From positions 434,001 through 498,000 of the forward strand of contig CAWUHX010000004.1 of the NCBI GenBank assembly GCA_963922205.1: a stretch of DNA of 64,000 nucleotides. The letters run 5' to 3'. Shown here piece by piece: positions 2,708 through 23,164 of the stretch; position 1 is the first letter of the stretch; each line of letters begins with the position of its first letter. Under the pieces are notes generated by a model. That model had not been told where the DNA came from, searched no databases, and saw nothing but the letters and a program-made list of their open reading frames with translations. The stretch comes from Romanomermis culicivorax. Its lineage: Eukaryota; Nematoda; Enoplea; Mermithida; Mermithidae. Made by a program: the position numbers and the translations under genes.

Positions 2708-3454
2708 TGTCACATTAAACGGAGATGGAGCCATGTCACATTAAATGAAGTGGGTGATCAGTCACATTGACGGGCAAACCCGTACCATATCCCATAGGTA
2801 ATATGGTCATGACACTGTAGGTGTCATGCTGTGACCCCGTGGGGTGGCTCCAGTATAATTCTTCGTTTCGGGAACCCAACCCAGCTGATACTACCACAGG
2901 TAAACCTATGGTGTATCTCGGCCTTGTCCTGGGGTTAATGCTGTAGAATAATGGACAACGCGGCCGGGTCGGGGGTGTCAATCCCTAATCCTCATTCTAC
3001 GGAATGGGGGACGGTGCCATTCGGGGAATGGCTTACTGTAGGGGACCCGATTGTTAACCTAAATCCCCTTTATTGGCCCTGACCTTAAGGGTCTGAGGGC
3101 TTTCTTAACTGAGGGTCCTTCCGAGGGAAAACTGGCTTAGGGGAGACTCCCACAAATAAACCCTCAATAACAATAACCCCTGAGAAGACTCACGACACTT
3201 CTTCTCAAATTACTCGGCGCTGGGCGACGGGTTCGGGGTCAAACGCGGGGTCCTACGGACGGCGATGTGGGAACGAACTCCGAGCGATTCGGCGTGGGGA
3301 TTCGGCGGCTGCTAAACGGCAGGCGGCGATCACTAACGTTTCCTCGGCGAGGGGCGATGGGTCTCTACACTAACGGCGACGGTGACGGGTTCCTCCGGTC
3401 GGGTTACTGTAGGCGACTGTGTGTATGTGTAGGTCGGGGACGAAAATATGGTAA

Positions 3455-3510
3455 TTTATTCGACGTGTGACGGCAACGCAGTTGACAACAATAAAATATA
3501 ATAAAATATA
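3455..3510 (-). promoter_or_regulatory. TATA-like tract and AATAAA signal in the LTR of element 1
   Basis: On the minus strand 3510-3491 reads TATATTTTATTATATTTTAT, a strong TATA-like tract. AATAAA follows at 3460-3455. The same pair is in the 5' LTR (offset +14,848), and comparable AT tracts plus AATAAA are in the LTR of element 2 (about 56690-56760). This suggests transcription start and poly(A) signal lie close together, which would put the R region near 3450. The start site is inferred, not shown. Confidence 0.45.
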
Positions 3511-3623
3511 TCGGCGGCGGACGCGACGTGAAGCTAAACGACGAAAAACCAGTTAGGCTCAAAGAGAGTGCCAAAAACACACAAAACATGCCCTTTTAAA
3601 GGGCTCCATAGACTACAGTATGC

Positions 3624-3847
3624 CTTGGGCGGAGTTAACACTCCCCCAAGCTAACTTCTGCAGCGGAAATCGTTGCAGAAGATGCCTATGATCACATAGA
3701 CATTTTCAGTTCACAACGTTAAGCATTGGGGTGAGTTTTCACTCTCCATGCTTAACATAGGAACGTCACTAGTGAGAATTTCAACTAGTCGTTTCACGTT
3801 GTGAAACATCGCTAGTTTTTACTGATAAGAAGTGCACGTTGTGCTCT
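3624..3847 (-). other. Chain of hairpins in the LTR, maintained in element 2
   Basis: Consecutive inverted repeats are: 3624-3634 with 3641-3650; CTTCTGCA (3655-3662) with TGCAGAAG (3674-3681); GTTAAGCAT (3718-3726) with ATGCTTAAC (3748-3756); ACTAGT (3768-3773) with ACTAGT (3784-3789); GTTTCAC (3791-3797) with GTGAAAC (3801-3807); and a weak one near 3831-3847. In the LTR of element 2 the matching positions (56876-57080) differ in sequence but still pair, for example CGTTTT (57045-57050) with AAAACG (57059-57064). The function is unknown; it may act as RNA or as palindromic protein sites. Confidence 0.6.
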
Positions 3848-4137
3848 AATTACAGCGATGAGCTCGGAGAGCTTATCTTTAACCGAAATTCTTGACTAGC
3901 GGGCACATACCGTAGTCTACGTGTGCGATTGAAAAATAATAAATCGAAACGGAAATAAATGTGCGCAAAAGCAACAGAAATAAACATAAAAGTACACACA
4001 TAAATTGCATGTAAAAAGTATAAAAACGAAACGCAAAATTGATGTAAATTACTGTAACGCAAAACATAACGAAAAACATAATGAAAAATTGTGATGTGAA
4101 TCACATGACGTTCGACGAAATCCGTCGGCACGTGACA

Positions 4138-4597
4138 CAGCGGTCCTTCGAAAAAGGGCGTCCTCGTCCTTGTGCCGGCTGCGACGGTCAAACGTTCAGG
4201 TGAGGGCGGCGGCGAGCGGTTGCTGGTTCAGTGGTTTTTCGGTATGTTCTGGTTTGTGGAATTGTGTCAATGTTGCGTGGAGTTGCTGACGTCCATTGGA
4301 GATGCGTGAAGTTGCTGACGTCATTTGATCCCTTCGGTGAAGTTGCCAATTGTCGGTTGATTTGTGAAATCTGAAACGAGACTAAGAGAAAAATTTTAGA
4401 GGCGAGATATAGGCTATCGCATGGATGCGCCTACAATGTGAGGCAATACCCCAGTTTAGATGCATTGATCGCTGCTCATTCTCTTCTTTACACTGCTATT
4501 CCAGCTTGGAACAGAAGTGGGTATTTTGTGAGGGGCACGGCGGTCCTTCGAAAAAGGACGACCCCGTCCGTAAGTAAAGAAGAGAAGAGCTACATGA
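4138..4597 (-). other. 3' untranslated region of element 1 with a duplicated ~37-nt motif
   Basis: This lies between the pol stop and the 3' LTR. A motif with the core GGTCCTTCGAAAAA (plus strand) occurs next to the LTR (4138-4172) and again beside the end of the ORF (4536-4574). Element 2 has the same two copies at 57361-57397 and 57814-57852. Two AGTTGCTGACGTC words, one containing TGACGTCA (4316-4323), echo the leader array. No convincing polypurine tract touches the LTR: the minus strand there ends GAAGGACCGCTG. Confidence 0.6.
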
Positions 4598-7500
4598 TTA
4601 CGGGTCGGCGACCTCCGCATCAAGATGTGGGTCAATGAGATCTTGTGTAAAATCTCTATTTGTCGACGGGATCAACAAAGGTGCCGTCTCGATGACCTTG
4701 GAAGTGGAAGGTGTCTCCTCTTCTTCTGTAGGCTGAGCTGGTGACACGTAGCGTCTAAGCTGATTGACATGCACAGTATCTTCTTGATCAGCCTCAAGTC
4801 GAATGGTGACATTAGGATAAGCCACATTCGTGACAAAGTAGGGGCCATCATAAATGGGCAATAATTTGGGCGTCAGACCACGTTTTCCAGTAGTGCGCAG
4901 TTTGAGCACTTGATCCCCAACCTTGTATGAGACATCTCGTGCCATGCGGTCGTAGGACCTAGCATAAGCCGCCTGTGATCTCTCAATTCTGCTCTGGATC
5001 AAGGTCAAGGCATTTGTAAAATGCCGTTTGACCTCCATATCATAAGTAGAAACATCTATGATATGGGCCGGAGGATTGAATGAGAGTGCTGCATCAACAG
5101 GTAGCATGGGAGTGCGACCATACATGAGTTCAAAGGGTGAATACCCTGTGGACTCATTCATGCTAATGTTGACAGCGAACACAGAGTACGGCAGGTGTTC
5201 ATCCCAATCAGTATGACCTTGGTGGACATACATACGTAACCGTGTGGCTAGCGTTTGGTTAGCTCTTTCCACTTCTCCGTTTGTCATGGGATGATAAGCG
5301 GTGGAGTGGATTTTCTTAGTTGAACAAATGGCAGTGATTTCAGTCATCAGTTTGGACGTGAAATCAGTACCACGATCAGACTGAAGAATCTGCGGTGCCC
5401 CATGTCTGCAGACAATTTGAGTAACAAAAAGTCGAGCTATAGTTTGCGCAGTGATGTCCAGAGTAGCGAAAGCTTCAACCCATTTAGTGAAGTAGTCTAT
5501 AAAAACTACGATAAATCGGTTTCCGTTTTCACTAGTGGTCATTGGTCCCATACAGTCGACACCGACTCGATGAAACGGTCCCGTAATGGAGATTGGTTTC
5601 AGAGTTGCACGTGTCTTTTGTCTCGCAGGCTTATTCCGTTGGCAAAGATCACACCGCTGACAAAAGGACTTGACATCCGCACTGAGGGAAGGCCAGTGGT
5701 ACCTGCGGGCTATAAGCCTCGCAGTACGTTTCGCACCAAAGTGTCCAGCAAGAATGTCGTTATGATGAGCCTCAACAATGGTAGTAACCATTGAACGAGG
5801 GACAACAATCTTGTTGGACTCGCCTGTCCACTTCTGAAGGATGTTATCCAACAGGTGGTAGCCATTAACATCATTCTGATTACCGTAGGGTTTTAGTGAC
5901 CTGAGAATGGAGGCTAATTCCGGATCCTCAAATTGAGTTGCGAGAAGGTCATGGTGCTGCGCATCCTGTGATATCTCTGCATAAGACTCAGACCTGGCCA
6001 GGTGCTGCGCACCATTGGTGGTCCTTTGGGATGAGTTCGCCAGGCGCTGAGCACCATCGGAGATCATCATAACTTCTCCCTCGGGTCTGTATAGGGGAAT
6101 ATCGTCAATACTCTCCCCGGCAAGGGAATTAGGATCAGGAAGGCGTGATAATGCGTCGGCATTACCATTAGACCGACCTTTCCCCGGCCGAATAGTCAGT
6201 TTGAATTCAGCTAACACGAGGCCCCACCGAGCTATCCGGGACGAAGGGTTCGGTTTTTCCAACACAGCCTTAACAGCAGTGTGGTCGGTCTGAACGACCA
6301 CCTCATGTTGAAAGAGGTATGGCCGAAAGTGCTTGACGAAATGGACAACAGCGAGAGTCTCCAACTCCGTAATAGTGTAGTTTTTCTCAGCTGCTGTTAA
6401 CCCTCGACTGGCGTACGCAACAGGATGGTCGTATCCATTCTCGTCCAACTGGCTTAGAACTGCTCCTATCCCCGAAATACTTGCATCAGTTTGAAGTATA
6501 AAGGATTTCGTAAAGTCCGGATGGCGCAGGACAGGAGGGTTCAACAACAGCTTTCGGAGTTCGTCGAACGCCGATTGCTGAGGTTTTGACCACTGGAAGG
6601 TAACTTCCTTCCGTAAGAGCTTGGTCAGCGGCTCGCTGAGCCGAGCGCAACCAGGGATGAAATGCCTATAATAAGACACAAGACCAAGAAAAGACTTGAT
6701 GTCTTTAGCGTTTTGTGGAATGGGTAGATCCTGGACGGCAGCCAATTTGACTTTGTCTGGTTCGAGACCTTTCTGTGAGATGCGGTACCCGAGGTATTCT
6801 ACCTCAGAGTGCGAAAACTTGCACTTGCTCAGTCTGAGCTTCATTCCACCCTGACGGAGACGCGTAAACACATCCGTCAGGCGCACAAGCATCTGAGTGT
6901 GAGAGTTCCCGAACACCAGGATGTCATCGAGATAGGTCAGTGCAGTGCACCACTGCAGTCCTGTAAGAAGCAGGTCCATGAGGCGTTGAAACGTCCCAGG
7001 GGCATTGCAGAGACCAAAAGGCAGATAGTTGAACTCGTAAAGTCCAATAGGTGTATTAAACGCCGTTTTTTCTTTGTCTGCCTCGGCAATAGGTATGGAC
7101 CAGTAGGCGTTAGCCTGGTCAAGGGTAGTAAAGTATTTCATACCCTTGAGTGTGTCCAGGATATCATCAATCCGTGGGAGAGGGTAGACATCCTTTTTCG
7201 TGACCTCGTTGAGACCACGAAAATCAACACACATCCGGTGTGACCCATTTTTCTTGCGAACCAAGACGGTGTTAGTAGCCCAGGGAGAAGTGCTAGGCCG
7301 AATAATACCTTTCTCTTGGAGCGCTTTGACCTCCTGTATGATGAGATCCTTTTCCTTGGGCGCGGTGCGGAAAGGGAAACGGCGGACTGGGCGAGCGTCA
7401 CCCGTGCTGATCTCATGGTGCACGAGGTCAGTGGAACCTGTGTCCTTTTCATCAACAGCGTAGAGGTCAGTAAATGCGACCAGCAGATCGAGCAACGCTG

Positions 7501-10500
7501 TTTTGTCCTGTGAGGAGATATCTGAAGATATCACAGCATTGGCTTCAACCCATTTATGGTCAAGAATGGTATCAGCCTTGACCGCCGATCCCTGGAAGGA
7601 ATCAGTATGCATCTGCACATGACCGATGGTCGTGTGTGGGTAGAGAACCACTGCGTGTGTACTTGGGTTAACTACCTGTAGGGGTATGCGACCATTGGTC
7701 ACAGTACTCACAGTACCAGCAAAGTATACATTACGTTGTTGGCCCAAAAGAGGCTTAGGGAAGAAAGCTACTTCGGGCACAGTTGCATATATTGAAGGTA
7801 CAGGTGCAGTGAATTGTGTTAGCGAGCGAGGCTCAAGGACAATCAATTCCGGCAAGGGTAGTGCCCCACGAGTAGAAGGTGGATTGTGGATGAGGCCTTC
7901 ACACGGAACTCGAAGTTCCTTGAACTGGAGAAAGGATTTCTCCCAGCTCAAGCTGACGCAATTGAAACGTCCGAGGAAGTTCGTCCCCAAGACTAATTCA
8001 GCTGAACAATTGTCTTGAACCTGGACTTGAATCCGTTCAGAGACATCAGCCACTGTCACCGTGACATAGGCAGAGCCTAGCAGTGGGATCGGGGACCCAT
8101 TGGCTGCTATGGGGCGAGCCCTAGTCTGTGTGAGTACCAAGTCGGGTAACTGGACCGCCAACTTGTGATCCAGGAGCGAGAAAACAGCTCCCGTATCAAT
8201 TAGAGCTTTGGCCTCTACCCAATTGTTCAGTAGAACCTTGATATGAGGGGTCCTCATCTCAGTGGGGTAGAAAGCTGATACTACATGACCTGGGTCAGGT
8301 ACAAAGTCATCAAAGCTCGACTCTGGCGCATTGGTTCGCCTCGGTATGGGTAAACCAGTGCGTCTGAGTAAACCTACCAGAGCATAGCCAACCGATGTTT
8401 CCGGATGGGCCTCAGGAGTTGGATGGACCTGAACAGTGAGTACATGATCTGATCTCTCTCCTGAGCTCTGAGTAGCTCCTAGTGATTCCACCTCAGCATC
8501 AGAGAGCGGTGGCACCTCTAGTACAGGGGATGCAGGTGCATCAGAATCACTAGGCTCGCGAAAACGGCCTTTCTCTAGTGTAACGGGAGAATTTCCAGGC
8601 GGTGGTCGAGGGCAGTTTGACCCTGACCTGGCCATGGAGTGACCACTAGCCCGCCTAGAAGAGGTCCTACTTCCTCTGGTTGACCCACGGGATGAGGCAA
8701 TGGAGGAAGCTCGCGAGTGTGGCCGAGAAAGAGACGAAGTCCTTGATCGTGATCGAGACCCGGACCTGTGGGAGGCCCTTGATAGTGAACGTGTGTTCTC
8801 CCACCAGGGTTCGATTTGATCAATCTCGGCTGCTGTCAACAGAAGTGGTAGTTCTACCGCATTCAGTCGGCAGACATGTTGTTGGTAGTCAAACGTAATA
8901 TTCTGGAATTGTTCTAAGAAGTCCAATCCAAGAATCAGATCGACCGGTGCCCAAAAAGGAGACGTAGTCTTACACACATGGAGATGTATATCCACTCGTG
9001 TGTGTGGCTGACGGGTTCCCGGCAACATTAGCTCATACGGTCCTGAAAGGAGAGTATGAACGGCTTTACCATTGATACTCATCAATGGATTAAAGTCGTG
9101 ATGCTGCTGGAAAGCCATCGCCGCCTTCGGACTCTCCTTGATCAGCGCTTTGTGAAGGCGTTGACTAATGATAGTCCGTGGACAACCAGTATCAAGGAAA
9201 GCTGGAGTTTCCTTGTGGTCAACCAGTACGACAAAACACGGAGTGATTCTGTCTAACTGAGTTGGCACATCGTTCTGTACGTAATGAAAACCTACCCAAC
9301 GCTGAACTTTCCGGAGGAGGTTCAACGGAGAGTATTGGCTAACAAACCGAACCTGTCTTTTCCGCAGGCGGTAGCTGAGGTAATAGGAGATCCCAACGTA
9401 GATGAGAAATCCTGTACCGGCCAGTACTGCCAGGGTAATAAGTGTGTTAAAGATGAGCTGCACTGGTCCGCTCAAAAGAGACTGTAAGCCCTGCATGAGG
9501 TTGTGCTGCTGACCAGTAATCACATGGTTTGCTGCCAGACCAACACCTTCCAGTGAGGCTCTGATGTCAGTCCCTACCCCTGCAACCGCCTGATACAGGG
9601 TATCTGGTTGTAGGGATAAACCAGCTGTATAGTTTACCAACCGGTTCAAGACCGCTTCAATTTGCTCAGTCTTGTAAACGTACTGTTTAAAGAAAGCAAA
9701 ACTTGAAGGGGTCATCGCTAACTGGTCATGAAAGAGCGCAGGAGCGTCAAAGTGAGTGACGTTGAATCGCTGCTTCCAGAACAGTTCAAGCGGAATGTGG
9801 CTCACATGGACCGTGCCAGATTCAGTAAACCAGCCAGAGCGATTTCGGAAGATTCCTGTAAAGTGGTGGTCACACGGCACCTTTGGACTGAATTTAGTGA
9901 GATCTGGGCCACCGGGGGTGGCAAAATAAATGGTACCGCCAACCTGTACGGGTAGATACTTGTAACAGGTGTCTCCCACTCGGTACGAATGATAGACATA
10001 AGTGGCGTTGACCTTTTGACACGGCCATATTGTCAGTGCTTCACCCGTAAATTCCGCCGTCAGGTCATTCCTCTGAAGGAATGCCCGGGCTCCTAGTGTA
10101 GGGTCAAAACGAAGCAACCGCCAAGTCAGATCAAGGTAGCGTTGAGCGTGAGAACACAACTCTAGCCACATGAATCGAAAATTGTTAATTTCCGACTCTT
10201 TGATCTGCTGAGCCAGGTAATTCAGTTTGGCATTGACGGGGTCAGGGACGGAGTCCTTTGTCAATCCGAATAACCTCTGGGTCAGATTAAATCTTCCGTG
10301 GATGCGTAGAAGAAGACCCTGATCCGTTCGTACTGTATTCAACCGGAGGTCAGGACACAGTCGAAACACACGGGAGTTTCCCGGGATCTTCAGGGCAACC
10401 TGCAAATCATCGATGATGATGTGGTTCCCTGATACAGACGCAGTGTAATTACCTTGTGGCCGATAATGGCACTGTGCTGTAAAGTTTGTGGCAGGCCAAA

Positions 10501-11368
10501 CAATTACCCCGTCTAGAGTAGTGCATTGACCTGCAGTGGGACTGCATCCACCTACATCTCCTAAGGTGCTTAGAGCTGTAGTGCCATCCCACGAAGCGAC
10601 CTGTTCCTCCTCGATGAAAAGGTTAGTCACTGTCTTGCAGACGTCATTGCAGCACCATGAGTACATCACCTCCAGTGTTTGGTTAGTGCTATAAAAGCCA
10701 GGACGTATTTCCACGAGCTTTTGTAAACCAAACACCTTTGTGCGATGTGCTAGTGTACATGCCGCAGGCGCGAGGTGCTGAGTAGTAATGACGTCCGCAG
10801 TAATGCCCCTAGATCCGAAAAAACCAGTGTTCGTGCATACCTTACGATTCCGTAGGGTACATTTCCATGCTTTAGTCGTGATTGGATCGGAAATAGGTAC
10901 ATATACTGTAACATTCATGCGTCGTGGACTCCACGAAGATTTTGGTGGTTTGCATTCAACTTTCTGAGGTAACTCAAGTGGATGACCGCTTCTTGAAAGA
11001 CCACAAAATTGGTATTGAGTAGCATGTGTTGCAGAGCTCATTCCTAAGAACAGTAGTGTCACGAAGGCCCAATTTAATACAAACAAAATATTTACAAACG
11101 GTGTCTGCAAATTTACACCAAAATTTACATTTTTCACCCGTCGGGCGGCTTCATTCTTTGACGTCGTCGTCGTTGGACGACGCGGGCTCCTCTCCGGGGA
11201 AGTCGATGACCAAGCCTCCTCCGGGGTGGACTTCTCGAAGAACGCCAATCTTCGGGGACCGCGGGACGGTAGCCGTCGGAAATGGCGACGCCTTGGTGAC
11301 GTTGATGGCGTTGTGAACAGCGGGCAACGGTTCTCCAAAGGCGTTGGCGACAGGTTGCTGGGGCGCAA
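4598..11368 (-). CDS. Envelope-like glycoprotein fused to Pol (2 x retropepsin, RT, RNase H, integrase), element 1
   Basis: One open frame of 2256 codons. Residues 1-72 overlap the end of gag in another frame and are probably not coding. A hydrophobic signal peptide (about 91-116) is followed by a cysteine-rich ectodomain with nine N-glycosylation sequons (N152 to N579) and a transmembrane segment (about 636-666). A cytosolic basic stretch then leads into a first retropepsin-like domain (LDTG at 725-728, LILGLDFL at 811-818), an Arg/Ser-rich linker (868-907) and a second retropepsin-like domain (IDTG at 1057-1060, VLGTNFL at 1126-1132). RT follows (about 1330-1520, YLDD at 1479-1482), then RNase H (D1628, E1668, D1695), the integrase zinc-binding part (H1869, H1876, C1906, C1909) and the DDE core (D1938, D1998, E2034, spacing D-x35-E). 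Signal peptide, lumenal part, membrane span and cytosolic enzymes are topologically consistent. The env family was not recognised. A likely intron acceptor at 11105-11106 could supply a spliced env-pol mRNA; translation from the upstream frame is less likely because a signal peptide needs an N-terminal position. Confidence 0.9.
11105..11120 (-). promoter_or_regulatory. Candidate splice acceptor in front of the env-pol signal peptide
   Basis: On the minus strand the sequence reads GGTGTAAATTTGCAG, then ACACCGTTTG, ending at 11105. The exon that would start at 11104 opens directly into the hydrophobic signal peptide in the env-pol frame. There is no in-frame ATG between here and the ectodomain except at the end of the signal peptide, so an upstream exon would have to provide the start codon. 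The donor was not identified. Confidence 0.4.
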
Positions 11369-13492
11369 TCGCCGCCAAAGTTTGGGCTCCCGTCGTCATT
11401 GTCGTCGGTGACGTTGCAACAACTGCTGTGGGCCGCACGTTGCGACTGGCCTTTTCCACAGCGCGGCGGACGGCGTCCACTGCCGGCGACGACGGTTCAC
11501 CGTCCAACAGGATCTTGTCCACCGGGGTGGCGCGAATAGTTCCGTCGGCGATAAACTCGAGCGCCCGTCGAGCGACGTCGGGTCCCAAAATCCGCAACAC
11601 CGCCGGTGCCGATAGCATGACGTCGGCGGCCGTAAGCGCCTCAACCTCGAACGGCTCGTTGAGTAGCGCCCAGGGGAGGTGCGGATGCTTTTTGGCCAAG
11701 TCGGTTGACCAAACAGCCCGCATCGCGTCGGTGACGGATGAGGAATCTGTAAGCAAGAAATCAGTAAAGCCGGAGACTTGTAAAGATATCTGTCTTGTGA
11801 ACTTGAAACTTCAGAAAAAGAAGGCAGTTTACCTATCAGATTCATCGATTCCAGTTGACCGACGACCTCCAACGCGGAGTCCGTGGGAATTCCGGGCGGC
11901 GGTCCCTGGTTGATAACACGTGCCGGTGGCGCCGTTGTACCTTCCATCAGTCGATACGACGCGATTACGCTGACGTCGCCAGTCGTTTTCGGTGTCGCTG
12001 ACGGGTTTACGTTGACCGGCGTCGCGTATTTCGGTGGTGGCGGCGGAAAAGTCGACAACGGGGTCGCCGAAACCACTGCCGCAGCTGAAAAACCAATACT
12101 GATTACACAGACAGGATAACACAGTTGTGAGCGATCCGCCAGGTGTTCAGCCAGAACTTCATCATCCAGGTCAAATAAGTCTGGGTGAAGAAGTCCTTCG
12201 GTGACCCCTACAGCATTATTTTGCCGTGGAGGTGACCGATATTGGTTCCCTATCCCGTGAGGAGTTGGATTAGCATACCTCCGAAAATTTCCACTTGCCC
12301 CCTGAGGAGAATAACCAGAGTTACCAAAATTAGTCTCACCAGGCAGTGTCCAATTTCGATTGGGGCAAGCTGTTGCCCGGTGCACTCGTAGTTTTCGGCA
12401 ATGCGGGCAGGGTCTGTCGCATCGGTCAGTCGGGTGCGCCCTCGTTCGACAAAAATAGCAACGGCTGGCGCCGGTGGCGGAGGCGGTGCTAGGGCCGGCG
12501 CTATTGGGATTTTGCGCCCGGCAAGTAGCGTCGTTGTGGGTGCAGCGTCCATGGTAGGAGCACATCTGTAGATGTGCCCCTGACGGGCGATCGCCGGCGG
12601 CCTGGACACGCGTCGACGGCGTCGATGATGGCGTCGAATTTCTCGAAGGTGGCGCCGATTGCTGAGCCGTAAGTCGCGCAATGTGAGCCGTGAGCCGGGC
12701 CATCTCCGATTGTAAACGTCGAACCTCGTCGGACGGCGTGGCCGACGGATGTTGAGCGGTGCTCCTTTGATTCGACATTGACCTGACGTTGTCGGCGGTC
12801 CTTTGTTCTGAAGAGAAAACAGCATTAGATGGGGCAGTATACCTAATCTCATCCCGAAAAATCTGTGATTCCGCGTAACAGGCTGCTTTGAGCGTCTCTT
12901 CAAGAGTTGTGAACTCCCTGAACTTAATACTATCTCTAAGGACTGGTCTCAACCCTCTTAGAAAGATAGGTTTAATAATAGAATCCCTAACGTCAGTCGC
13001 GAGATCCGGATAAGCCACCCTGGACAGTCTCTTAAGGTGCTCAAGGTAGACTATCGCGGATTCAGTCGGCTTCTGCAGGCGATCCTGGATCAACTGCTGG
13101 TGCAGATCTGAATCACGCCCTACTGGAAAGTCTCTCCTAAGAAAAGCTGTGAACTCTTCGTAGCGGGTAGGCTGCGGAGTACCACTGCTAAAGTCCCGGT
13201 AGGATGCCAGAGCAGGACCTGTGAGGCAAGACTCCAGAAACGCGATTTTATATGCATGATCCGCTTCTGTTACCCCTTGAAGTGTAAAGAAACGGGTCAA
13301 GTGGGATATAAAATCCGTTATGGACTCACCAAAAGCACCGGAAAAGGCAGGAGGGGCCATGAAGCTGGACACAGGAGGGTGCCTTCTGCCATTCATAGCC
13401 TCTAGCTTTTGGTTGAGTGGTCCAAGGGCATTCTCAAATGCAGCTTGGACCTTATTCTCAATCTGTGAAGGTAAATCAATTTCTGACTTCAT
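11151..13492 (-). CDS. gag: Gag polyprotein of element 1, two exons
   Basis: Exon 1 runs 13492-11833 and exon 2 runs 11746-11151, joined across an 86-bp GT-AG intron, about 750 residues in all. Residues 45-215 have the look of a Ty3/gypsy capsid region ([13 protein letters not shown], then a helical stretch through FLRRDFP and [10 protein letters not shown]). A Ser/Thr-rich hinge (280-300) precedes cysteine knuckles: an unusual C-x3-H-type motif (311-324), a classical CX2CX4HX4C (345-358) and a CX2CX5HX4C variant (362-376). Exon 2 adds an acidic, alanine-rich C-terminal part. Without splicing, frame 1 stays open to a TGA at 11396-11398 and gives a different, arginine-rich tail. Gag should form the particle shell and bind the RNA. 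The start is the first ATG, 21-24 bases after a TTACAG acceptor-like site (13517-13512), so a leader intron is possible. Confidence 0.8.
11747..11832 (-). other. Small spliceosomal intron within gag
   Basis: The minus strand reads ATAG then GTAAACTGCC at 11832 and ends TTGCTTACAG at 11747, 86 bp. Removing it joins codon 553 to a long frame (11746-11151) whose composition is protein-like, while the unspliced frame becomes arginine- and proline-rich. The length is not a multiple of three, so splicing switches the reading frame. The copy of element 2 in this window lacks gag, so conservation cannot be tested here. Confidence 0.7.
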
Positions 13493-15340
13493 AGATGAGA
13501 ATTCGTCTTCCTGTAAGGTATCTAAGACTGATGATCGTGCCTGTGAAGTATTTGATCGAATTGAATAGAGAGGGGTTCACTTGTCCGTTTAAACTTAGTA
13601 CTAAGTCGACAGGAACGTCTAGGTGTCTCTATTTTGTAGGAGTAAAGTAAGAGTTACTTGTGTAGTCGCGTGGCGAGGAAGCGCGGGAAGTACGAGATCA
13701 TTTGCGCGACGGCGTGTTGAGGCTGTAACGCTTGTTCTTTTCAGTATCTAGCGGCCACTCAGCGATGGGGCTAGAAAAGGACAAGGTTTTAGCTCTCAGA
13801 ACAGCCAGACGGAGAAATAGGTTGACACAGAAGGGAATTTATCTGGTCACCTACGTAGGTAAAGAGGGGATAACCCTAGTGTAAAGAGAGGGAGAAGTAT
13901 ACCCAAACTTTAGAGATGAATGGGGCAAGACCCGGTTATTTGAACCAAAAGTATAATACATTTGAAAGAAAGTGGTGGAATTCCAAACCATAAAATTAAG
14001 GAACCGACGTGAGGGCGTACGGATAAACCCGCTCAAAAGGGAATTTTATCTGGAGGTTAAGTCCGTTGTACTAGTTTACAAACTTTGGGATATGGTAGGG
14101 CTCGTAACCGACAAAGTCCTACTCACCAGGAGTAGCGCATGGAGTAGCTTAAGAATTAATAAGTAAAGGGGGACAACTTAAAGTAAACTTAGTGGGTGCT
14201 AATAGATAGGGACAAAATTAGTTTACAAACCAGACTACGCAAAGGGAAACGCACTATTACGCAATCGGCCTCACTCACTAGGAGCAATTGCGAACTCTGA
14301 AAAGTGTGATGACTAGACAGGAGGATCCCGGGAGGACGTCATTCGCGTGTATGCTACAACCGTGCCCAAAAACGGGAATGCGCGTTTTGAACAGAACGGG
14401 AACTCTCCAGGAGTATTATATACAGCTGGGGGCCGGGTTTCCGTTCACTGAGATGAAGTGAGCATCGCAGGTCACCAGTTGAGATATAAGAGCACCAGGT
14501 ACCAGGGTGCTATTCTGACACACTCAGTCAGTAAAAGGGCATGGGGGTCCTTGGCCCAGCTGTGCCGGTGGTGGAGGTGGGGAAATGCAGGCTTCCTCCT
14601 ATGAATCGAGGCTAGGCTCAACGCATCTTGAGATCAGGGGTACAGTCTGTCTCGAATAAATGAGTGTAAAGTGAGGAGCTAAGGCGGACTTAGTTGTAAT
14701 GTGTTTAGGCAGACTCGAACACCTTCGCTTAGGCGGACTAGCGGTAATATTATGCTAAGGGACAAACCAACGGAGGCTGACTCAGGATTAAGGGCGACTC
14801 TAGTGCGGACATTATTAGGCCAGCTAACGAAGGCATTTGAGTGTAAAGAAAGGAATACAGGGGGGTCTTTTACACCTTAGGCCCAACCAGTGGCTGTGCC
14901 GTAATTCCTGAGGAATTATTCTGGTGGGGACACTAAAGAAGATCATAAATGAGAAAGAAATGCGAGAATTTAAATAAGAAATTTACAGGAAGGTTGACAA
15001 CCCTTGCAGTTGTTAGACACAGGCAGTACTGACTGCAAATGCCTAACGGTTGCGTATGTTGAACAACCAACCCAGCTGAGGCCGAGTGTAAACCCGTTCA
15101 AACCTGCAGTTAAAGCTTAGAAGAGTAGTCACGTGCTGATCCATCAGTGCCGCTACCCTTGCGGACAACTTGATCAGTGCCACGGACTGGGTGCATCTCA
15201 GGTTGCGTGAGTATGTCTACTGATGTTTCCCAGGCACCGGTAGCACACAGACACAACCCTAAAACAAGAGTCGTAGGTGAGAAAATAATATTACAATCAT
15301 CACCTAGAACTCAAGTGGCATCTTGGAAACCCACAGTAAC

Positions 15341-16195
15341 CCGGTGCTGACGTCAAAAGATGTGATATACACCACCACACTCGGTGCGGACCTCAGGTAA
15401 CTGGGATGTAAGTGCCATAATCTCATATTGCAGTACGTACGCCAAAAAGTAAGAGCCTACGGCTACAAACTCTTTACGGCAATACGGGGCATCGCCGTTG
15501 CTGACGCCAGAATAAGACTGTAGAGTCTTAATTCCGATACTGGAATAGAGATTTATCATTGTGGACATCAGTAGATAGGGCCCTAGGCCAGCAACCTTGC
15601 TACGACAACACGGAGCATCACCGTTGCTGACGTCAAAAGGTAATAGCTGAGTCTCAGTTATCCTACGACAATGATATGAGATGCAGTTGTTGCAGACGCC
15701 AGATGTGCGGTTTGTAAGGCCTCACATCTCCGAACAACAATACGGTGCATTATTGTTGCTGACGTCAAGGACTGGAGTCGGGATAGCCGACCAATCCTAG
15801 TGCAACAACACGAGCCTCTGCTGTTGCAGACATCAAGAGGACAGTGCCATACGGTCACCATCCTGCAATAACAACCTGTTACGTTGCCATTGCTGACGTC
15901 AGAGGTAGAGCCGGAGGGCCACCAACCCCTTAAAGCAACAGCAAGGGATGCAGCTGTTGCAGACGCAGGGGTGGCCACGGAGAACCTGCAACCCCTGAAT
16001 GACCACCTGATATGTGGCCATTGCTGACGTCAGAAGCATGACCCTGCTAGTCAAGCCTCAGTGCAACAGTAGCATGTGAGGTAGTTGCCGACGTCAGAGG
16101 TGGGGTCGCACAAGACACAACACCTCATAACAACAACCCAATAAGTAGTTGTTGCTGACGCCAGTGGTCCCAACCGGTAAGATTCTCACCACTTG
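15341..16195 (-). repeat. Array of about a dozen covarying stem-loop units with TGACGTCA cores
   Basis: Units of about 70-80 bp share the word TTGCTGACGTCA (variants TTGCAGACGCCA and similar). Exact TGACGTCA lies at 15348, 15628, 15760, 15894 and 16025. Between cores, each unit has an outer and an inner stem whose sequences differ from unit to unit but still pair. Inner examples: CAACAATA (15735-15742) with TATTGTTG (15751-15758); GCAACAGC (15935-15942) with GCTGTTGC (15953-15960). Outer examples: AGATGTG (15701-15707) with CACATCT (15723-15729); TAAGACT (15513-15519) with AGTCTTA (15524-15530); GAGGTG (16097-16102) with CACCTC (16121-16126). Where pairing is not Watson-Crick, it is usually a G-U wobble on the minus strand, that is, in the element's RNA, as in 15865-15875 with 15883-15893 and 15801-15810 with 15819-15828. 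Confidence 0.8.
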
Positions 16196-17537
16196 CAACC
16201 ACCCAGAAATAGGAAAATAAAAAGAAGAAAGAGAAGAAGGAAACCGTACAGTAGTGGAAAAAATAATAAGAATGACCTACTGAAGGTTTGCCAACTATGA
16301 CGTATGTGTGCCCAGTGAAGAAAAGTTTTGGTTGTGAAAATTTGAATAGAAGTGAAAAGAGAGTGTTTTGTTTGTTTGGGGGTTTTTTTTTTTGGTAGGA
16401 AAAAGAATAAATTTTAATTTGTTTGTTGAAAAAGGGGGAAGAAAAGGAAATGGGGTATAAGTTTTTATTGAGTTGATTTTGGAGATAAGAAAATTTATTA
16501 GGTGAAAAGTTATTTTAATTGGGTCACACACGACGCATAGGGACGGAGAAATAAAAAGGAAAGTAAATAAAATTAAAATTTGAGGCCCTAGAGATAAGCA
16601 ATGTGATCTGCTAAGTACGGTGTTAGATGTGTCAACAGTAAAATTTTGGCTTGTTTGGCCGGAAAAATGAGCAACTTGGCTAGTGCTCAGTGGAGATAAG
16701 AAAAAATTTTGAAAAAGTGTGTTGACACACATACCGGACACAGATAACAACTCACGACCACACTTGACGTCCAGAATCAAGAGTGGAAGGGTTACTGTAC
16801 CTCGTGATCGGAGATCCCGAAACCCTCAGGGGCTGTGAAAACCTCATGGGTTGTGATACTCAAGTACCCGTACCCAGGTATACTGTAGTTAGAGTACGTG
16901 CTAATCGCAGTCATACTGTAACCAAAAGGCCTACGGCGCTACAGTAACCTTTCCGATCACACGCAGTGAATGGAGGCCCGAAATTAGGGAAAAATTAGAA
17001 AGAGGAAGGAAAAATGAAAGCACAGAGGAGAATTACGGCAGTATACTCGATTTACTCAACTCTGGGAATTTTATGACTCTTGGGGATTAAATCTGGGGAA
17101 AAATCGATACCAGAGGATTAACCAAAGCTTACGGGAGCTAGTATACTCATGAGGGGTTAATTACGCGCAAGAATCATTAATTTAATCACTCGTGGGGCAA
17201 ATCCCGACCTACAGTAATTAAGTTTTACTCAAATGCGGTGCTATCTGAGTTGGCGTTAAACTCGAATATAAGGGCCTATTCCGACCTAAGGGGTAGTCTA
17301 CCTTCTTACGGGCGTATCCACTTATATGAGGGCAAAAACTTCATCCCAAGGGTCAGTGTCCCACTTTGGAAGCGAATCATCAGACCTGAGAGAGGTTTCC
17401 CCACTCAAGTGGCGATTCTCATGATCTGATGGAGGTTTCCCCTACTCAAATCGAAAATTTACCTAGTTGAAAGAGGTATCTCACTCAAAAGGTTAAAAGG
17501 TTCGTTCCCAATGACTGTGGAGTCAGACTTAAAGGTC

Positions 17538-17555
17538 GATTTTCCAGCCTCGCCA
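17538..17555 (-). other. Primer-binding site of element 1
   Basis: Directly inside the 5' LTR the minus strand reads TGGCGAGGCTGGAAAATC. It begins with TGG, as expected for pairing with a tRNA 3' CCA end. The implied discriminator base G is typical of tRNA-Ser, but the tRNA was not identified from this window. Confidence 0.7.
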
Positions 17556-18985
17556 TGTCACATTAAACGGAGATGGAGCCATGTCACATTAAATGAAGTG
17601 GGTGATCAGTCACATTGACGGGCAAACCCGTACCATATCCCATAGGTAATATGGTCATGACACTGTAGGTGTCATGCTGTGACCCCGTGGGGTGGCTCCA
17701 GTATAATTCTTCGTTTCGGGAACCCAACCCAGCTGATACTACCACAGGTAAACCTATGGTGTATCTCGGCCTTGTCCTGGGGTTAATGCTGTAGAATAAT
17801 GGACAACGCGGCCGGGTCGGGGGTGTCAATCCCTAATCCTCATTCTACGGAATGGGGGACGGTGCCATTCGGGGAATGGCTTACTGTAGGGGACCCGATT
17901 GTTAACCTAAATCCCCTTTATTGGCCCTGACCTTAAGGGTCTGAGGGCTTTCTTAACTGAGGGTCCTTCCGAGGGAAAACTGGCTTAGGGGAGACTCCCA
18001 CAAATAAACCCTCAATAACAATAACCCCTGAGAAGACTCACGACACTTCTTCTCAAATTACTCGGCGCTGGGCGACGGGTTCGGGGTCAAACGCGGGGTC
18101 CTACAGACGGCGATGTGGGAACGAACTCCGAGCGATTTGGCGTGGGGATTCGGCGGCTGCTAAACAGCAGGCGGCGATCACTAACGTTTCCTCGGCGAGG
18201 GGCGATGGGTCTCTACACTAACGGCGACGGTGACGGGTTCCTCCGGTCAGGTTACTGTAGGCGACTGTGTGTATGTGTAGGTCGGGGACGAAAATATGGT
18301 AATTTATTCGACGTGTGACGGCAACGCAGTTGACAACAATAAAATATAATAAAATATATCGGCAGCGGACGCGACGTGAAGCTAAATGACGAAAAACCAG
18401 TTAGGCTCAAAGAGAGTGCCAAAAACACACAAAACATGCCCTTTTAAAGGGCTCCATAGACTACAGTATGCCTTGGGCGGAGTTAACACTCCCCCAAGCT
18501 AACTTCTGCAGCGGAAATCGTTGCAGAAGATGCCTATGATCACATAGACATTTTCAGTTCACAACGTTAAGCATTGGGGTGAGTTTTCACTCTCCATGCT
18601 TAACATAGGAACGTCACTAGTGAGAATTTCAACTAGTCGTTTCACGTTGTGAAACGTCGCTAGTTTTTACTGATAAGAAGTGCACGTTGTGCTCTAATTA
18701 CAGCGATGAGCTCGGAGAGCTTATCTTTAACGGAAATTCTTGACTAGCGGGCACATACCGTAGTCTACGTGTGCGATTGAAAAATAATAAATCGAAACGG
18801 AAATAAATGTGCGCAAAAGCAACAGAAATAAACATAAAAGTACACACATAAATTGCATGTAAAAAGTATAAAAACGAAACGCAAAATTGATGTAAATTAC
18901 TGTAACGCAAAACATAACGAAAAACATAATGAAAAATTGTGATGTGAATCACGTGACGTTCGACGAAATCCGTCGGCACGTGACA
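17556..18985 (-). repeat. 5' LTR of element 1
   Basis: This 1430-bp copy of 2708-4137 is followed outside by the target duplication GTGT (18986-18989). The TATA-like tract of the active promoter copy lies at 18358-18339 on the minus strand. Confidence 0.95.
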
Positions 18986-21961: not shown

Positions 21962-23164
21962 GGCGTATTCCTAAAACAGTGTTTCCTAAAACAGCGTTTC
22001 CTAAAAGAGCATTTCCTAAAAGAGCGTTTCCTAAAAAAACAGATTCCTAAAACAGCGGTTCCTAAAACAGCGTTTCCTTAAACAGCGGATTCCTAAAACA
22101 GCATTTCCTAAAACAGCGTTTTCCTACATTAAATAGATATGCATTAAATCACAATGATGTGTTTCCCACGGTATGCGTTGCAAAGCTACCTCCAGAAGTG
22201 CTGTAAAGTGAGGTGTGTACGTATTGTGCGAGTGTTAGTCACTTTTCCATTCATTAGTAACTGTTTTTTGAAAATGGATGTGTTTAAGACTCAGAAAAAA
22301 AGTGAATGTTTAAGCTTAGCTGGCTATTGTTATAGAATTGATTACCGAAAGCCCGAAAAAACGATTTGGTGCTGTACAAAAACAGGCTGCAAGGGAAGTG
22401 TTGTAATAAAAAATTGAATGTTATTGTTTTCTCATTTTGCGCTGAATTGTTCTAGTACAAAATTGAATGTTATCGTTATGTGCTCTCATTTTGCGCCGAA
22501 AACCATGCACATAGCTTTTTTGGTGTTTATTTTAAACGTTTAAGCATCTAAAAACGTTTGCATTTGAAAAAACAGTTTTCTTTCAAAAGTCTACAAAAAT
22601 CTGCATTTTTTGCCCAAAAAAATAAAAAACTACTAAAATTTTGCTTCGCATCAATTGACACTTTTTCCATTTTGAATGAAAAATAGCGAATTTCGCAATG
22701 ATTAAACCCCCATGCATTTGCATACGGATAAGACACGTCGTTGGAGAACAATTGCAAAGATAGTGGATATATGCCAATGACTACATATATACTAAGTTAA
22801 TGGTTAGTCAATGTTCGTTTATTATGTAACAAAAACAGACACTCTTCATTTATAAAAGCACAATCTGAGCAAAATAAACTTTTTCAACAGCGATCTAGTG
22901 TAAAGAACCTGAATGATAAATTGTGCCCATATATCATATACTAGGAACCGCTGTTTTAGGAAAATGCTGTTTTAGGAAACACTGTTTTAGGAAAACACTG
23001 TTTTAGGAAACGCTGTTTTAGGAAAACGCTGTTTTAGGAAACACTGTTTTAGGAATCTGCTGTTTTAGGAATCCGCTGTTTTAGGAAACTCTGTTTTAGG
23101 AAACCCTGTTTTAGGAAACGCTGTTTTAGGAAACGCTGTTTTAGGAACCGCTGCTTTAGACCTA
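21962..23164. mobile_element. MULE-like element with tandem-repeat inverted ends
   Basis: The left end (21967-22127) is about ten copies of a 15-16-bp unit, TTTCCTAAAACAGCG. The right end (22942-23158) is about 14 copies of its reverse complement. The two arms would form a long hairpin. The flanks TTTTCTAGT (21953-21961) and CTTTCTAGT (23165-23173) match at eight of nine bases, and 9-bp duplications are typical of MULEs. The interior has a FLYWCH-like finger, a domain that commonly accompanies MULE transposases. No transposase remains, so this is a non-autonomous or decayed copy. Confidence 0.65.
22154..22417 (+). pseudogene. FLYWCH-type zinc-finger fragment
   Basis: The frame of 87 codons contains, from about residue 42, a block resembling the start of a FLYWCH finger: FKTQKK, then LAGYCYRIDYR, then TIWCCTKTGCKGSVV. 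The CX4-5C pair is present, but the frame ends just before the expected His-x-His, so the finger is truncated. These fingers bind DNA and are found in MULE transposases and derived host regulators. The position between inverted arrays suggests a transposase remnant. Confidence 0.5.

What the first reader, a model, noticed from the sequence alone, without database searches (positions are those of the whole stretch)
15341..16195. Array of stem-loops with compensatory stems in the leader of element 1
About a dozen units keep a constant TTGCTGACGTCA-like core, while the flanking stems change sequence and still pair, typically 6-11 bp. Mismatches on the plus strand are often G-U pairs on the minus strand (for example 15768-15775 with 15791-15798, 15865-15875 with 15883-15893, 15998-16006 with 16014-16022). 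That points to selection on the element's RNA rather than on DNA. I know of no named element of this kind; packaging, ribosome entry or nuclear export are possibilities.
Basis: seen in the sequence. Interest (0 to 1): 0.88.

Follow-up and report, generated by a model that had tools for sequence, protein, structure and literature searches.

The report
Repeated folded RNA domains in retrotransposon
Upstream of its first gene, a virus-like mobile element of a nematode worm carries a row of repeated RNA folds whose base pairs are kept while their letters change; they probably mark the element's own RNA for packaging or export, and they match no catalogued RNA family.

Summary
The leader of a 16.3-kb LTR retrotransposon (minus strand, 18985 to 2708) holds TGACGTCA-like cores every 61-68 nt with paired flanks. 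Four helix types pair better with their own partners than with swapped ones (0, 29, 15 and 44 of 200,000 permutations reach the observed value). A diverged neighbouring element (68% identical over the array) keeps the design; one stem has four double compensatory changes in nine pairs around an identical loop. The repeat is better described as a ~132-nt five-helix domain, six in element 1 and five in element 2, with alternate units joined by a stem. The genome has 2,421 paired-core matches against 0 for a reversed control. Assembly statistics match Romanomermis culicivorax. No Rfam match; 10 of 10 leader pieces of related Gag families lack the array. Most likely it is a multivalent signal for selecting or dimerising genomic RNA (0.45); nuclear export is the main rival. 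Function is inference. The G-U strand argument is only partly supported, and column-by-column counts across clades do not support the inter-unit stem P1 or hairpin P5.

The parts
2708..18985 (-). Element 1, LTR retrotransposon (LTRs 17556-18985 and 2708-4137)
   Evidence: LTR copies 99.4% identical; Pfam matches to Ty3-type capsid, RT, RNase H, integrase
13493..17555 (-). Leader between 5' LTR/primer site and the gag ATG at 13492; 4063 nt with 40 ATGs
   Evidence: primer-site motif TGGCGAGGCTG at 17555
15423..16209 (-). Array of six ~132-nt domains (degenerate cores continue to 15344)
16073..16209 (-). Domain 1 (windows of neighbouring domains overlap by 3-4 nt)
   Evidence: fold -54.8, z -3.9; 1 of 300 shuffles reach it
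15945..16076 (-). Domain 2
   Evidence: fold -57.4, z -3.4; 0 of 300
15812..15948 (-). Domain 3
   Evidence: fold -65.0, z -5.5; 0 of 300
15678..15815 (-). Domain 4; its P4 stem shows four double changes against element 2
   Evidence: fold -52.7, z -4.3; 0 of 300
15547..15681 (-). Domain 5, the weakest fold
   Evidence: fold -37.7, z -1.3; 32 of 300
15423..15550 (-). Domain 6
   Evidence: fold -44.3, z -4.0; 2 of 300
4283..4323 (-). Two further core copies in the 3' untranslated region (link to the array not shown)
   Evidence: both present in 9 of 10 fetched copies, one piece without a match

Best explanation
Shown: the element's leader carries a tandem array of folded structure that is kept in other genomic copies and in a diverged clade while stem sequences change. 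Well supported: the repeat is a ~132-nt domain, P1[ P2 hairpin, P3[ P4 hairpin, P5 hairpin ] ], in which P1 joins alternate units. Predicted only: P3, the pairing of two palindromic GACGUC cores. Inferred: the array acts on the full-length genomic RNA as a multivalent docking and dimerisation platform. Gag, or a companion element protein, recognises the near-invariant core many times over, and the self-complementary, interchangeable cores can exchange partners between two RNAs, so that full-length RNA is selected and packaged, probably as a dimer.
For: Helix-by-helix swap tests over 11 domains: P1 0, P2 29, P4 15, P5 44 of 200,000. The P1 register is the best of all permutations in both elements (1 of 720, 1 of 120), and its mean energy beats that of the local even hairpin in 11 of 11 arrays. 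Orthologous units of elements 1 and 2: 15 double changes kept against 6.6 expected, 12 of 20,000 reach it. P4 of domain 4 changes from AACAATAAT/ATTGTTGTT to AATGGTGAC/GTCACTATT around the same loop. Column-preserving null: double-kept cells 17 against 5.1 in the E1 clade (0 of 1000), 147 against 87.4 for E1 against the E2 clade (2 of 1000), 102 against 53.1 for E2 against the E1 clade (0 of 1000). The core is more conserved than the rest of the unit (10 of 72 against 160 of 503 sites differ). In 101 cores A3 became G 16 times and U6 became C never, although these are equivalent positions of a palindromic DNA site. Core-core pairing is predicted for 1-2, 3-4, 5-6 and 7-8 of element 1 at 0.84, 0.47, 0.83 and 0.74. 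For packaging: the place between primer site and gag, and the 40 upstream ATGs that make this leader a poor gag mRNA by scanning.
Against: No functional data. Followed column by column across clades, P1 is badly kept (25 of 122 and 17 of 86 changed cells) and P5 no better than the null of 38-39% (68 of 187, 15 of 52); linker misalignment may explain this but was not shown. Within the E2 clade double changes do not clearly exceed the null (9 against 4.7 cells, 82 of 1000; distinct changes 480 of 1000). In element 2 core-core pairing is clear only for 3-4 (0.86; 1-2 is 0.24, the others at most 0.13), and cores 9-11 of element 1 show none; sequence cannot tell odd-even from even-odd core pairing (36 of 48 against 29 of 42 complete). 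Core change G5 to A, which breaks pairing, occurs 9 times. Cores paired in P3 would not be free for contacts between RNAs. Related Gag families have short leaders without this array, so it is not needed for packaging in the wider group.
Confidence: 0.45

Rival explanations
1. Nuclear export or retention-escape platform: an element-coded or host export factor multimerises on the array so that unspliced ~16-kb RNA leaves the nucleus, as Rev on the RRE or NXF1 on the CTE.
For: Multivalent design; a nematode Ty3/gypsy element (Cer1) needs its own protein CERV for export of genomic RNA (PMC10309623, abstract and section 15 read). An env-like gene between gag and pol may need splicing, hence control of unspliced RNA (inference).
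Against: No CERV- or Rev-like frame was identified in the leader; the longest leader frames of elements 1 and 2 do not look alike. No export data.
Confidence: 0.27
2. Translation element: the array lets ribosomes bypass the long leader with its 40 ATGs (internal entry or shunting).
For: Long structured leader, 40 upstream ATGs; a polypyrimidine stretch lies just before the array in both elements.
Against: The array ends about 1.9 kb before the gag ATG; splicing of the leader could solve the problem more simply.
Confidence: 0.08
3. DNA-level array: palindromic TGACGTCA sites for a bZIP (CREB/ATF-type, recalled) activator or an insulator like the Su(Hw) array in the gypsy leader (recalled); pairing of flanks would reflect cruciform DNA or be secondary.
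For: TGACGTCA is a palindrome; array of sites next to the LTR; the swap tests are as strong for the antisense strand (0, 53, 41, 18 of 200,000); recent changes show no G-U bias.
Against: Does not explain four conserved helix types or the sense-strand stability excess (9 of 11 domains); core changes are asymmetric between equivalent positions (A3 to G 16, U6 to C 0 of 101 cores, not independent).
Confidence: 0.08
4. Structural rival: independent local hairpins, two per 66-nt unit, with any of the functions above.
For: Units 4 and 6 of element 1 form good local even hairpins (-14.5, -19.6); P1 is poorly kept column by column across clades.
Against:: the P1 register beats the local one on average in 11 of 11 arrays, and the repeat lag is 131-132.
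Confidence: 0.1
5. No present function: a by-product of tandem duplication of an inverted repeat.
For: Recent copies drift nearly neutrally; related families do without it.
Against: Pairing retained across clades about 32% diverged, with double changes above the null; core conserved.
Confidence: 0.04

Closest known systems
Retroviral packaging/dimerisation leaders (Psi with palindromic dimer-initiation loops; recalled) and Ty1/Ty3 (PMC4974528, passages seen)
   Same: Structured RNA between primer site and gag; palindromic motif; several stems.
   Different: Here 5-6 tandem copies of one ~132-nt domain with a constant core and diverging stems; the palindrome lies between helices, not in a shown apical loop. 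The review says that Ty packaging sequences are not precisely defined.
MPMV CTE and HIV-1 RRE (as described in PMC10309623 section 15, read)
   Same: Structured RNA on unspliced viral RNA that recruits export factors, for the RRE several molecules.
   Different: Other place and fold; no export protein known here.
Cer1/CERV of C. elegans (PMC10309623: abstract, sections 6 and 15, term-search passages)
   Same: Nematode Ty3/gypsy-related element whose unspliced RNA needs a dedicated route.
   Different: No RNA target of CERV is named in the parts I saw; 'stem-loop', 'leader' and 'untranslated' occur 0 times in the main text, and the paper says only that Cer1 RNA is predicted to be highly folded. 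I did not see the Cer1 sequence.
gypsy insulator, Su(Hw) sites in the leader (recalled)
   Same: About a dozen sites between LTR and gag.
   Different: DNA sites; no conserved paired flanks that I recall.
Five-unit array in cousin elements L075 and L079 (this work)
   Same: Tandem hairpins between the same primer-site motif and gag; constant core AAGGTTCAGTAAAAC; outer stems GAGT/ACTC (3 units), GGGTT/AACCC, AGGTT/AACCT.
   Different: 41-48-nt units, unrelated core, weak predicted stems (-4.6 to -9.1 kcal/mol); the two copies are identical over the array, so they count as one case.

Membership tests
Ty3/gypsy-like LTR retrotransposon | LTRs, Ty3-type capsid, RT then RNase H then integrase | tested here: met
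   (Ty3_capsid 1.3e-07, RVT_1 1.2e-35, RT_RNaseH, Integrase_H2C2, rve)
Ty3/gypsy-like LTR retrotransposon with env | usual gene order gag-pol-env (recalled) | tested here: not met
   The env-like match lies between gag and a sub-threshold protease match; the order inside pol is the usual one
Any Rfam family | score at or above the gathering threshold | tested here: not met
   0 hits in the window; at E up to 5, 2 sub-threshold hits in the leader, neither in the array, 0 in the element 2 leader
Retroviral-type packaging/dimerisation signal | structured, palindrome-bearing leader of the genomic RNA | tested here: met
Retroviral-type packaging/dimerisation signal | binds Gag/NC, needed for RNA incorporation, forms dimers | not testable with these tools
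   needs biochemistry
CTE/RRE-type export element | recruits NXF1 or an export adaptor and exports unspliced RNA | not testable with these tools
   no adaptor frame identified; no RNA data
gypsy-type DNA insulator | array of DNA binding sites, independent of RNA structure | tested here: inconclusive
   palindromic core present, but the conserved pairing of flanks is not explained by it
Simple satellite/tandem repeat | units alike over their whole length | tested here: not met
   Tandem Repeats Finder reports no array here; units share core and structure but little sequence

The most novel reading that the evidence does not exclude
A new class of retroelement RNA: a modular zipper of tandem five-helix domains whose interchangeable palindromic cores and mutually complementary P1 arms let neighbouring domains, or two genomic RNAs, swap partners, so that selection and dimerisation are multivalent. 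Cousin elements of the same worm (L075/L079) have an unrelated hairpin array in the same place, which suggests that such arrays arise repeatedly.
Probability: 0.25. Interest if true: 0.85.

Novelty: new variant of a known kind. Interest (0 to 1): 0.7.

Why it matters
How LTR retrotransposons mark their genomic RNA for packaging or export is poorly defined even for the yeast elements Ty1 and Ty3 (PMC4974528, passages), and for Cer1 of C. elegans an export protein is known but no RNA target is named in the parts I saw (PMC10309623). Here one genome offers what are probably hundreds of naturally varied copies of a modular RNA domain (2,421 paired-core matches), a ready-made mutational record that makes structure-function tests direct. 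A cousin family with a different array in the same place suggests a recurrent solution.

Tried and rejected
Rejected: (1) The local 66-nt two-hairpin model as the full description. (2) The G-U count as strong strand evidence: own arms 34 G-U against 13 A-C (A) and 31 against 18 (B), but swapped arms already give ratios of 1.81 and 1.48; single changes are 63:29 (E1 clade), 45:46 (E2 clade), 157:106 and 109:97 (between clades). (3) Recent copies as a covariation test: 27 family-1 and 11 family-2 copies differ mostly by near-neutral changes. (4) Relatives in IMG/VR: none by paired-core pattern or by an RT piece. (5) The array in related Gag families: absent in 10 of 10 leader pieces of about 4.4 kb (L070-L079) and in 4 of 4 gag-centred pieces (L066-L069); the primer-site motif was found in 8 of the 10, so the pieces of L070 and L077 may not show the leader.

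Led nowhere: Tandem Repeats Finder, Rfam, tRNA scan. Searches of the own genome for Gag P0001 and for the env family PF24664 did not complete (129, 132, 134), so whether env goes with the array is untested. Literature searches listed nothing that describes this array (titles and abstract starts seen; two searches found 0 papers; long result lists were shown only in part); most subscription journals are not held.

Dropped before a count: 4 of 175 pairs with a gap; the degenerate units below 15446 except where unit 12 serves as the P1 partner of domain 6; E2 units after the ninth (irregular spacing). The nine extra arrays were chosen by me from the first 103 or so listed rows for diversity and are not a random sample.

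Full report
What and where. The window is G000:C4:434001-498000 of an assembly of 359,112,060 bases in 595 contigs. These figures equal those printed for Romanomermis culicivorax v2 (359.1 Mb, 595 scaffolds; PMC10879605, passages including Table 1), and the two named hits among three Gag relatives are from that species; I take the host to be this mosquito-parasitic mermithid nematode (inference). Element 1 runs on the minus strand from 18985 to 2708, with LTRs 99.4% identical. Pfam finds a Ty3-type capsid, a Monjiviricetes-type fusion glycoprotein, RT, RNase H and integrase, and a sub-threshold protease match. From the LTR to the gag ATG at 13492 the leader has 4,063 nt and 40 ATGs.

The observation. 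A core like TGACGTCAGCAA (minus strand) recurs every 61-68 nt from 16163 down to about 15498, with degenerate copies to 15344. Between cores lie a stretch A, which begins with GCAA of the core, and a second hairpin B. With 11 units as local hairpins, own arms beat swapped arms: A 334 and B 1 of 200,000 permutations. Pooled with element 2 (20 units) under a strand-symmetric score: A 13 and B 2 of 100,000.

Element 2. A second element, at 57.8 kb, runs out of the window; I fetched its leader from outside (L009). It has the same array: 11 cores, nine of ten spacings 62-68 and the last 96, 68% identical to element 1 over the array. Units are largely collinear with an offset of two: in 7 of 9 cases the collinear unit is the best match of its row. 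Over the nine unit pairs, with the local fold of element 1, 131 of 171 pairs are kept against 119.0 in the null (11 of 20,000), and 15 changed on both sides and still pair against 6.6 (12 of 20,000). The clearest case is the P4 stem of domain 4: AACAATAAT/ATTGTTGTT in element 1 and AATGGTGAC/GTCACTATT in element 2, four double changes in nine pairs around the identical loop GCACCGT.

The repeat is a domain. Folding the array with a span limit of 220 nt showed even-unit A arms pairing with the neighbouring even unit, and core with core. Tested directly, the 3' A arm of even unit k with the 5' A arm of unit k+2 has a mean of -13.95 kcal/mol in element 1 (best of 720 permutations) and -13.12 in element 2 (best of 120), against -8.43 and -7.18 for the local hairpin; unit 6 of element 1 is an exception, with a slightly stronger local hairpin. 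In 11 arrays (the two elements and nine others that I picked for diversity) the mean P1 energy beats the mean local even hairpin in 11 of 11; permutations reaching it: 1/120 (E1, E2, L052, L065), 2/120 (L059), 3/120 (L062), 9/120 (L055), 4/24 (L054), 1/6 (L058), 2/6 (L063, L064). I therefore describe a ~132-nt domain: P1 encloses hairpin P2 and helix P3 (core with core), which encloses hairpins P4 and P5. By my reading, isolated domains fold this way in element 1 domains 2, 3, 4 and 6 and element 2 domain 1, and partly in the others. Sense z-scores: element 1 -3.9, -3.4, -5.5, -4.3, -1.3, -4.0; element 2 -4.7, -2.5, -2.3, -2.2, -1.8; the antisense z is less extreme in 9 of 11. Swap tests over these 11 domains: P1 0, P2 29, P4 15, P5 44 of 200,000; on the antisense strand 0, 53, 41 and 18, so these tests show pairing, not strand. 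The strongest repeat lag of the two leaders is 131 and 132.

Covariation across clades. With a null that keeps every column intact and redraws partners among columns with the same reference base: E1 clade, 117 of 203 changed cells kept (58%, null 45%, 2 of 1000), double-kept cells 17 against 5.1 (0 of 1000). E2 clade, 92 of 186 (49%, null 44%, 141 of 1000), doubles 9 against 4.7 (82 of 1000). E1 against the E2 clade, 386 of 850 (45%, null 38%, 10 of 1000), doubles 147 against 87.4 (2 of 1000). E2 against the E1 clade, 264 of 564 (47%, null 39%, 22 of 1000), doubles 102 against 53.1 (0 of 1000). By helix, between clades: P4 133 of 195 and 85 of 131 kept; P2 91 of 182 and 53 of 88; P3 45 of 87 and 10 of 20; but P1 only 25 of 122 and 17 of 86, and P5 68 of 187 and 15 of 52. 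So P4 and P2 are supported by aligned columns, P1 and P5 are not. Linker misalignment or real rearrangement could cause this; I did not resolve it. Cells count sequences, not independent events.

Other results against. P3 rests on energy calculation: cores are so alike that odd-even and even-odd pairing are equally good (36 of 48 and 29 of 42 complete). Recent changes in 27 family-1 and 11 family-2 copies show little constraint (43 of 109 single changes keep a pair where 36.4 are expected; 8 of 17 where 5.4 are), as expected of copies drifting after insertion. Yet core and paired sites are less variable than the rest (0.40, 0.39 and 0.87 minor cells per site over 28 sequences, which used the local model).

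Strand. The finding argued for RNA from G-U pairs. Counts favour it (64 G-U, 28 A-C), but swapped arms show part of the bias, between-clade single changes are mixed and recent ones even (27 and 29). Better support for the sense RNA is the sense/antisense z difference and the core: in 101 cores A3 becomes G 16 times and U6 becomes C never; in a palindromic DNA site these are one change read on two strands. C4 to U (19) exceeds G5 to A (9). The cores of related arrays are not independent (A3 to G falls at about four unit positions, my count), so this is suggestive only.

Distribution. 40 of 40 scored candidates (of 983 in the first look) match element 1's array over at least 681 of 686 nt at 95-100%, and 40 of 40 (of 989) match element 2's at 98-100%; these counts are lower bounds. 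The paired-core pattern has 1,339 + 1,082 matches and 0 for the reversed control; as one array gives several matches, I infer several hundred arrays. Among 11 arrays two clades are 66-69% alike, each diverging internally down to 83%. Ten leader pieces of elements with related Gag (35-99% identical to P0002, which is 30% identical to element 1's Gag over 53%) lack the array. Where the shared primer-site motif was found (8 of 10), the distance to the gag match is 516-867 nt, against 4,063 nt from primer site to gag ATG in element 1. The long leader and its array thus look like a gain of one lineage, within this sample.

Mechanism. The structure is repeated, conserved and in the leader of the genomic RNA; the core is the part conserved in sequence (10 of 72 against 160 of 503 differences, Fisher p 0.0014). 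A constant core spaced by exchangeable stems is the anatomy of a multivalent binding platform. That the core is also self-complementary and alike in all units, instead of covarying pairwise, suggests that cores must stay interchangeable, which fits dimerisation (inference). The place between primer site and gag is that of retroviral packaging signals (recalled). I put packaging/dimerisation first at 0.45 and export second at 0.27; CERV of Cer1 shows that a nematode element can need a dedicated export factor (PMC10309623, abstract, sections 6 and 15 and search passages). Independent hairpins, translation, DNA sites and no function follow.

Novelty. No Rfam family matches, and the literature searches listed under Tried and rejected showed no description. 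Structured leaders are a known kind; a tandem series of five-helix domains in an LTR-retrotransposon leader is, as far as I could find, a new variant of it.

Noticed in passing
4598-13492: Unusual gene order: gag, then an env-like glycoprotein (Pfam Monjiviricetes_fusion, 1.2e-16), then RT-RNase H-integrase in the same open frame as env. Chuvirus-type glycoproteins captured by retrotransposons are reported in arthropods (PMC7642597, PMC10084718; abstract starts seen).
   Followed up: partly
L075:3860-4100 and L079 (reverse strand): A cousin element family has a different five-unit hairpin array between the same primer-site motif and gag: constant AAGGTTCAGTAAAAC, outer stems GAGT/ACTC in three units, GGGTT/AACCC and AGGTT/AACCT.
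   Followed up: partly
4283-4323: Two core copies 29 nt apart in the 3' untranslated region, kept in 9 of 10 fetched family-1 pieces (one piece had no match). I saw none in element 2's 3' region when reading it. A 5'-3' RNA contact is possible.
   Followed up: partly
14957-15256 and 14357-14456: Leader stretches 77-86% identical between elements 1 and 2, more than the array, without an evident shared open frame; role unknown.
   Followed up: no
L077:1-900: Repeat with lags of about 92-101 nt, 3.5-4.4 kb upstream of a related gag match.
   Followed up: no
21963-22126 and 22942-23159: Two arrays of a 15-nt unit (TAGGAAACGCTGTTT-like) in opposite orientation, about 0.8 kb apart.
   Followed up: no
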